From: Mycolicibacterium alvei
GTDB lineage: Bacteria > Actinomycetota > Actinomycetes > Mycobacteriales > Mycobacteriaceae
DNA length: 64,000 nucleotides
Direction: 5' to 3'
Assembly: GCF_010727325.1 (NCBI RefSeq)
Contig: NZ_AP022565.1
Span: 4,340,001-4,404,000, forward strand
Shown here: piece after piece, positions 3,837 to 4,290 of the stretch
How the letters are laid out: each line of letters starts with the position of its first letter
How positions within the stretch are numbered: the stretch's first letter is position 1
Translations under genes and position numbers: made by a program
Notes under the pieces: generated by a model
The model's database searches: none
Told to the model about the DNA's origin: nothing
Seen by the model: the letters and a program-made list of their open reading frames with translations, nothing else

Positions 3837-4000
3837 TGGCCAGCACCGATATCCGGCCGATCGTGAAGCTGAAGTCGACCGCGGGCACCGGGTACACGTA
3901 CGTCACCCGCAAGAACCGCCGTAACGACCCGGACCGGATCGTGCTGCGCAAGTACGACCCGGTCATCCGTCGTCACGTCGAATTCCGTGAGGAGCGCTGA
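3836..4000 (+). CDS. rpmG: Alternative (zinc-free, C-) 50S ribosomal protein L33
   Basis: A 54-residue protein starting MASTDIRPIVKLKSTAGTGY, with YVTRKNRRNDPDRIVLRKYDP and ending HVEFREER, full length for bL33. It has no cysteine, so the two CxxC pairs of zinc-binding L33 are absent. It starts at the ATG that overlaps the rpmB2 stop (TGATG), and its own stop overlaps the next ATG in the same way, so the three genes are translationally coupled. Expected to be expressed only under zinc limitation. Confidence 0.93.
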   Translation: MASTDIRPIVKLKSTAGTGYTYVTRKNRRNDPDRIVLRKYDPVIRRHVEFREER

Positions 4001-4290
4001 TGGCCAAGCGATCCAAGATCGTCAAGAACGAGCAGCGCCGGAAACCCGTGGAGCGCTACGCCGAACGACGGACCGAGCTCAAGAAACCCAGGCGCAATCA
4101 GCTGAAGGCCCTCGGCGTGACCGAGGTCGACTACAAGGATGTCCATCTGCTGCGCACTTTCATCAGCGAGCGGGGCAAGATCCGGTCCCGGCGCATCACC
4201 GGGCTCACCCCGCAACAACAGCGCCAGGTCGCCGCGGCGATCAAGAACGCCAGGGAGATGGCGCTGCTGCCGGTGGTCGGCCCCGCTTGA
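4000..4290 (+). CDS. Chimeric alternative ribosomal protein: S14 N-terminus fused in frame to S18 body
   Basis: A 96-residue ORF that joins two ribosomal proteins. Residues 1-29 (MAKRSKIVKNEQRR to ERRTELKK) match the start of the C- S14 paralogue (rpsN2). Residues 30-96 (LKALGVTEVDYKD, LRTFISERGKIRSRRITG, QQQRQVAAAIKNAREMALLP) match the C- S18 paralogue (rpsR2) from about its residue 15 to the end. In other mycobacteria rpsN2 (about 101 aa) and rpsR2 (about 85 aa) are separate consecutive genes. About 70 codons of S14 and the first codons of S18 are missing, with the frame preserved. The S18 rRNA-binding part is intact; the S14 C-terminal domain is lost. It carries no cysteine. A real deletion-fusion or an assembly error would look the same here. 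Confidence 0.8.
   Translation: MAKRSKIVKNEQRRKPVERYAERRTELKKPRRNQLKALGVTEVDYKDVHLLRTFISERGKIRSRRITGLTPQQQRQVAAAIKNAREMALLPVVGPA

What the first reader, a model, noticed from the sequence alone, without database searches (positions are those of the whole stretch)
4000..4290. In-frame fusion of rpsN2 (S14) and rpsR2 (S18) in the zinc-starvation ribosomal operon
The third gene of the Zur operon starts as C- S14 for 29 residues and then continues as C- S18 to the end. Elsewhere in mycobacteria these are two separate genes. About 260 bases (the rest of rpsN2 plus the start of rpsR2) are missing, yet the frame is kept and start, coupling and stop are normal. The product would put an S14 N-terminal basic tail on S18, while the zinc-free S14 replacement is lost. 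That would change what zinc-starved ribosomes look like in this organism, or shows that C- S14 is dispensable.
Basis: partly seen in the sequence, partly recalled or inferred. Interest (0 to 1): 0.85.

Follow-up and report, generated by a model that had tools for sequence, protein, structure and literature searches.

The report
S14-S18 ribosomal protein gene fusion
In this mycobacterium a small deletion joined the start of one zinc-free spare ribosomal protein (S14) to another (S18), so the spare S18 is kept and the spare S14 is lost, a loss that appears to have happened repeatedly in related species.

Summary
The fusion is real. ORF 4000-4290 (96 aa) is the third gene of the altRP operon (L28, L33, fusion), beside the divergent hibernation GTPase gene mrf. 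Codons 1-24 come from C- S14; from codon 29 on it is C- S18. Against 8 of 10 aligned relatives 278 bp are missing, and the breakpoints fall in a short imperfect repeat (about 4072-4083) shared by both genes. Other database contigs carry the same junction with other alleles, so it is not an assembly error. Of 396 genus genomes searched, only this one has it. The genome keeps zinc-binding S14 and S18 and no other C- S14.

A survey puts it in proportion: of 155 genomes (of 297) with a C- S18 signal, 12 lack an intact C- S14, and an rpoC tree needs at least 11 changes of state. In four of these genomes S18 now sits at S14's start site. C- S18 is lost or broken in other species. Most likely the fusion is a working C- S18 with a passive basic tail, and zinc-starved ribosomes here keep zinc S14. 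That the protein works and the tail is neutral is inferred. Early decay is the main rival. New variant of a known kind.

The parts
2358..3527 (-). mrf: ribosome hibernation factor-recruiting GTPase, divergent neighbour
   Evidence: NF047431 559.7 bits against cut-off 375; cobW domains PF02492 and PF07683
3552..3569 (+). Zur-type palindrome between mrf and the altRP operon
   Evidence: Found with a pattern written from this site, so the exact match is by construction; the site is kept with few changes in the ten aligned relatives; Zur binding not tested
3600..3836 (+). rpmB2: C- L28
   Evidence: PF00830 89.8 bits; ORF
3836..4000 (+). rpmG2: C- L33; its stop overlaps the start of the fusion (TGATG)
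   Evidence: PF00471 59 bits; ORF
4000..4290 (+). rpsN2::rpsR2 in-frame fusion, 96 aa, C- S18 with an S14-derived N-terminus
4000..4071 (+). S14-derived codons 1-24 of the fusion
   Evidence: breakpoints at nucleotides 72-84 in all ten pairwise comparisons
4072..4083 (+). codons 25-28, short imperfect repeat shared by rpsN2 and the rpsR2 tail; the junction lies here
4084..4287 (+). S18-derived part of the fusion
   Evidence: PF01084 at residues 40-90; alignment

Best explanation
A deletion of 278 bp between short imperfect repeats removed most of rpsN2 and the first codons of rpsR2 and joined the rest in frame (shown by comparison; slippage or recombination between the repeats is inferred). 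The gene is read from rpsN2's own start site behind L33 (sequence shown) and, like the rest of the operon, is presumably made when Zur lets go under zinc starvation (inferred). The product works as the C- S18: its core takes the place of zinc S18 on the platform of the 30S subunit, with an S14-derived basic tail of 24-28 residues where relatives have a short basic S18 tail (inferred). C- S14 is lost (shown at gene level), so zinc-starved ribosomes should be mixed, with C- S18, L28 and L33 but the zinc-binding S14 (inferred). The S14 tail is most likely passive: S14 sits in the head and S18 on the platform, so it cannot do S14's work (structural knowledge, recalled).
For: S18 part over family cut-offs. 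S18-derived part nearly unchanged: against G123, 5 synonymous and 2 nonsynonymous differences in 72 codons, one of the two being codon 25 at the junction and the other absent from P0001. S14 remnant has the L16P change. Same junction in other alleles. Single zinc-type S14 and zinc-type S18 kept. In G145, G255, G283 and G057 an open S18 frame of 81-87 aa follows L33 directly at the kind of start site that S14 has in intact operons, so taking over S14's start is a recurrent outcome. At least 11 changes of C- S14 state on an rpoC tree. Tail charge +8 (residues 1-29) against +6 in the tails of two relatives.
Against: No expression, protein or ribosome data. The substitution counts are small and, with one genome and two other alleles, cannot prove constraint on the fusion itself. 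One database copy (P0061) has lost the frame, which may be an error or decay. C- S18 is broken or missing in other species, so the 3' end of the operon does decay. T79A is at a residue that is Thr in all ten aligned relatives. The AlphaFold model is poor (mean pLDDT 58.4; tail 46-49) and proves nothing.
Confidence: 0.72

Rival explanations
1. Decay. The fusion is an early step in the loss of the 3' half of the altRP operon; the protein is not made, not stable or not used.
For: Broken or partial rpsN2 and rpsR2 copies occur in many relatives, for example G017, G034, G039, G080, G096, G169, G199, G224, G298. P0061 carries the junction with a broken frame. T79A and L16P are unique to this lineage among the aligned genomes.
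Against: The frame, the start site and the S18 core are kept; few nonsynonymous changes in the S18 part; P0001 keeps T79, as the relatives do; L28 and L33 before it are intact.
Confidence: 0.2
2. New function. The S14-derived tail on S18 does something on the platform, for example acting on the end of 16S rRNA, on mRNA or on hibernation.
For: The tail is longer and more basic than the native one (+8 against +6). bS18 lies near the 3' end of 16S rRNA: in Bacteroidia that tail is held in a pocket of bS21, bS18 and bS6 (start of the abstract of PMC9976891, seen in a search listing). The mrf gene for hibernation is next door.
Against: No conservation of the tail beyond this lineage. L16P is likely to disturb a helix. 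Many S14-less species do without such a tail.
Confidence: 0.06
3. Assembly or sequencing artefact that dropped about 278 bp.
For: The ends lie in a short repeat.
Against: Same junction in other contigs with other alleles; the genome is in 2 contigs and rated 100% complete; the shared stretch is only about 12 bases.
Confidence: 0.02

Closest known systems
Mycobacterial altRP operon (L28-2, L33-2, S14-2, S18-2), as in M. smegmatis (PMC5912738; passages and section 13 read)
   Same: Gene order, L28, L33 and the C- S18 core, a Zur-type site upstream, mrf beside it
   Different: Three genes in place of four; S14 reduced to 24 codons fused to S18
C- bS18 of mycobacterial ribosome structures (PDB chains 6dzk_r, 6dzi_r, 9e16_r)
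   Same: Residues 22-95 of the fusion align with 6dzk_r residues 11-84
   Different: Those S18 chains do not have the S14-derived front part
C- uS14 (PDB chains 6dzi_9, 9e16_9)
   Same: First 24 residues of the fusion
   Different: The rest of S14, including the part that PF00253 describes, is absent
S14-less altRP operons of G145, G255, G283, G057 and others (found here)
   Same: C- S14 lost, C- S18 kept and read from the start site behind L33
   Different: Clean losses without S14 codons left in S18
L28::S14 fusion in G181 (found here)
   Same: Another in-frame deletion fusion in the same operon
   Different: Joins L28 to pieces of S14 and loses L33; from an assembly of about 190 contigs rated 84% complete
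Patchy presence of zinc-free RpsN.2 in streptococci (PMC12707111; passages read)
   Same: C- S14 present in some species of a genus and absent from others
   Different: Other regulator (AdcR) and no fusion described in the passages seen

Membership tests
C- bS18 (zinc-free S18) | S18 family match | tested here: met
   PF01084 91.3 bits against 21; TIGR00165 80.6 against 38.75
C- bS18 (zinc-free S18) | No zinc-binding cysteines | tested here: met
   No cysteine in the 96 residues
C- bS18 (zinc-free S18) | Incorporated into ribosomes under zinc limitation | not testable with these tools
   needs mass spectrometry or cryo-EM
C- uS14 (zinc-free S14) | S14 family match | tested here: not met
   PF00253 does not match; NF006477 23 bits against 77
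altRP operon | Four genes for C- L28, L33, S14 and S18 | tested here: not met
   L28 and L33 present, S14 only as 24 codons, S18 fused
altRP operon | Zur control | tested here: inconclusive
   Fur/Zur-type palindrome at 3552-3569 kept in the aligned relatives; binding and zinc response not tested

The most novel reading that the evidence does not exclude
The fusion is a ribosomal protein with a new role: an S14-derived basic arm that S18 carries to the platform of zinc-starved ribosomes, where it changes mRNA engagement or hibernation, in a lineage whose zinc-starved ribosomes are always hybrids with zinc S14.
Probability: 0.06. Interest if true: 0.8.

Novelty: new variant of a known kind. Interest (0 to 1): 0.5.

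Why it matters
An in-frame fusion of two ribosomal proteins that sit in different parts of the subunit, present in more than one allele, is unusual. With the survey it suggests that C- S14, described as a stand-in for an essential core protein (PMC5912738, passages), can be done without and has been lost repeatedly in mycobacteria. That predicts zinc-starved ribosomes with zinc S14 next to zinc-free S18, L28 and L33, which can be tested. It also corrects the picture of a uniformly conserved altRP operon (PMC5912738, section 13). [quoted passage not shown] species without C- S14 would differ there.

Tried and rejected
Assembly artefact: set aside because other contigs carry the junction. A second C- S14 in the genome: none found. 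I fetched four (G523, G638, G614, G561). None is a fusion: three have a separate full-length S14, and G523 has no C- S14 in the 2 kb taken. G448 (from residue 8) was not fetched.

My first idea that S14 alone is lost was wrong: in 10 of 297 genomes there is a C- S14 signal but no C- S18 above my threshold; I looked at eight of the ten and saw S18 missing or damaged beside S14; G072 and G281 were not looked at.

A first rpoC tree was wrong because antisense frames were picked for six genomes; it was rebuilt, and only the rebuilt trees are used. A first breakpoint script was off by one base and was replaced. L128 (G339) dropped out of the operon alignment because a search word did not match. G181 and G043 gave no rpoC match and are not in the tree. 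The AlphaFold model (26 rows, mean pLDDT 58.4, pTM 0.35) is too weak for a fold search, so none was run; it shows the first 30 residues at 46-49 and helices in the S18 part.

Literature: searches. No listed title or abstract start names an S14-S18 fusion or repeated C- S14 loss in mycobacteria; I read passages of six papers (PMC5912738, PMC8121289, PMC12707111, PMC13418864, PMC12186496, PMC8866557) and one section of PMC5912738, no whole paper. Subscription papers are mostly not held.

Full report
What is there. Next to a divergent mrf gene (2358-3527, minus strand; NF047431, 559.7 bits against 375) lies an operon of L28 (3600-3836), L33 (3836-4000) and a 96-residue ORF (4000-4290). A Fur/Zur-type palindrome lies at 3552-3569 (the pattern was written from the site itself) and is kept with few changes in the aligned relatives. 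Zur control is inferred from the known altRP operon (PMC5912738, passages and section 13). The ORF scores as S18 (PF01084 91.3 bits; TIGR00165 80.6 bits) and has no cysteine. Its N-terminus gives only a sub-threshold S14 match (NF006477, 23 bits against 77).

The junction. The window's operon was aligned with ten relatives (an eleventh, L128, dropped out on a failed search word). The ten have rpsN2 and rpsR2 as two genes; in G298 rpsN2 is frameshifted. Against 8 of 10 relatives 278 bp are missing (269 against G238, 277 against G298). In all ten comparisons the best breakpoints lie between nucleotides 72 and 84 of the fusion, where rpsN2 and the tail of rpsR2 share a short imperfect repeat. So 24 codons are S14, codons 25-28 are shared, and from codon 29 the protein is S18. 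In the relatives the two genes overlap by one base (TGATG), so a deletion of 3n+2 keeps the frame. Slippage or recombination between the repeats is inferred.

Real, not an artefact. The genome has 6.02 Mb in 2 contigs and is rated 100% complete. In a search of about 5.8 billion proteins (the best 120 of 5,373 listed) P0001 is the same protein with one difference (T79, as in the relatives) and stands for 2 members on 2 contigs, the longest 8,546 bp, so not the window's 5.7-Mb contig. P0002 (80 aa, 3 members, 1 contig) has the junction with R31M and is called from codon 17. P0061 has the junction but loses the frame further on. Sources of these three are hidden and their contigs could not be read. 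In the genus, 396 genomes were searched with the DNA: 77 match at E<=1e-30, and only the own genome is contiguous over 1-291.

What the genome kept. One S14, of the zinc type with its cysteine pairs, and one further S18, of the zinc type.

Selection. Against G123, the nearest relative by the operon DNA, the S18-derived 72 codons show 5 synonymous and 2 nonsynonymous differences; one of the two is codon 25 at the junction, the other (T79A) is not in P0001. The S14-derived 24 codons show 2 and 1, the one being L16P, at a site that is Leu in all ten relatives and Pro in P0001. L28 shows 5 and 0, L33 2 and 1. This fits an S18 that is kept and an S14 remnant that may drift, but the numbers are small.

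The survey. I read the tables by eye. Of 297 genomes, 155 have a best match to the fusion query at E<=2e-20, taken as a C- S18 (list); this cut is mine. Of the 155, 10 have no S14 match better than about 1e-12, the level of zinc S14 (G000, G013, G057, G065, G075, G145, G181, G255, G269, G283); G181 keeps S14 pieces in another fusion. Two have damaged copies (G096 frameshift, G199 front part gone). The other 143 score as having C- S14; their frames were not checked one by one, so 12 of 155 is a lower bound. Outside that set G298 has a frameshifted copy and G366 none. In the other direction, 10 of 297 have a C- S14 signal and no C- S18 above the cut; eight were looked at and show S18 missing or damaged. 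The 3' end of the operon is thus unstable in both directions. The remaining 132 of 297 genomes show neither signal above these cuts, 20 of them not complete or clean by the 90%/5% mark at most (rates 275 of 297 as at least 90% complete and at most 5% contaminated).

Independence. On an rpoC tree of 58 genomes (60 asked for, G181 and G043 without a match) at least 11 changes of C- S14 state are needed, both for the 13 losers that keep C- S18 (55 rows) and for all 16 losers (58 rows); 10-11 over bootstrap trees. For G366 the kept S18 rests on a DNA match only. The 42 genomes with C- S14 were picked by me. Shuffled labels need about as many changes (mean 11.8 for the 13; 167 of 500 shuffles as low in the careful tree), so the losses are scattered and not one event. 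Shared gene order makes losses, not gains, the natural reading.

How S18 survives. In G145, G255, G283 and G057 an open S18 frame of 81-87 aa follows L33 directly, at a start site like that of S14 in intact operons (G057 with a GTG start). In the window too the S18 core is read from S14's start site, only with 24 S14 codons left in front. I read the fusion as one more loss of S14 in which S18 took over its start. In G013 an ORF of about 100 aa without a Pfam match stands where S14 should be. In G181 an in-frame L28::S14 fusion has lost L33.

Function. Best reading (0.72): a working C- S18 with a passive basic tail (net charge +8 in residues 1-29, +6 in the tails of G123 and G272), and zinc-starved ribosomes that keep zinc S14. 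M. smegmatis needs the altRP operon in severe zinc depletion (PMC5912738, abstract and passages). A review says that C- S14 of B. subtilis enters by new assembly (PMC13418864, passages). In a table on zinc-limited M. smegmatis the zinc forms of S14 and S18 appear with negative protein values (PMC8866557, passages; column heads not seen). The AlphaFold model is weak (mean pLDDT 58.4; residues 1-30 at 46-49; best in the helix 71-88) and is only compatible with a loose tail on an S18 core. Rivals: decay 0.20, new function 0.06, artefact 0.02.

Known or new. PMC5912738 states that the operon occurs in all mycobacteria except M. leprae, with a shortened form in M. avium strains (section 13). The scans here show many genomes without a C- S18 signal and repeated loss of C- S14. 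The searches named in Tried and rejected listed no paper that reports the fusion or this recurrence. I class the fusion as a new variant of a known kind.

Noticed in passing
L137:1658-1966 (G181): Another in-frame fusion in the altRP operon: L28 joined to pieces of S14, L33 gone; both PF00830 and PF00253 over cut-off. The genome is rated 84% complete, so an assembly fault is not excluded.
   Followed up: partly
L131, between L33 and S18 (G013): An ORF of about 100 aa with no Pfam match stands exactly where rpsN2 should be, read from the S14 start site.
   Followed up: partly
window 4302-4397: Cobalamin riboswitch (RF00174, 39.8 bits against 31.5) starting 12 bases after the fusion's stop, before an ABC transporter set (PF01497, PF01032).
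   Followed up: no
window 9421-9438: Second Zur-like site (2 mismatches to the first) just before a ZnuA-like gene (9448-10362) and an ABC-3 permease gene (11135-12019).
   Followed up: no
and tables: 132 of 297 genus genomes show neither C- S18 nor C- S14 above my cuts, against the statement that the operon occurs in all mycobacteria but M. leprae; incomplete genomes and diverged copies may account for some.
   Followed up: partly
L160 (G224), L161 (G080), L163 (G039), L164 (G034), L169 (G169), L172 (G017): Partial or frame-broken rpsN2 or rpsR2 copies: the 3' end of the altRP operon decays in several ways.
   Followed up: partly
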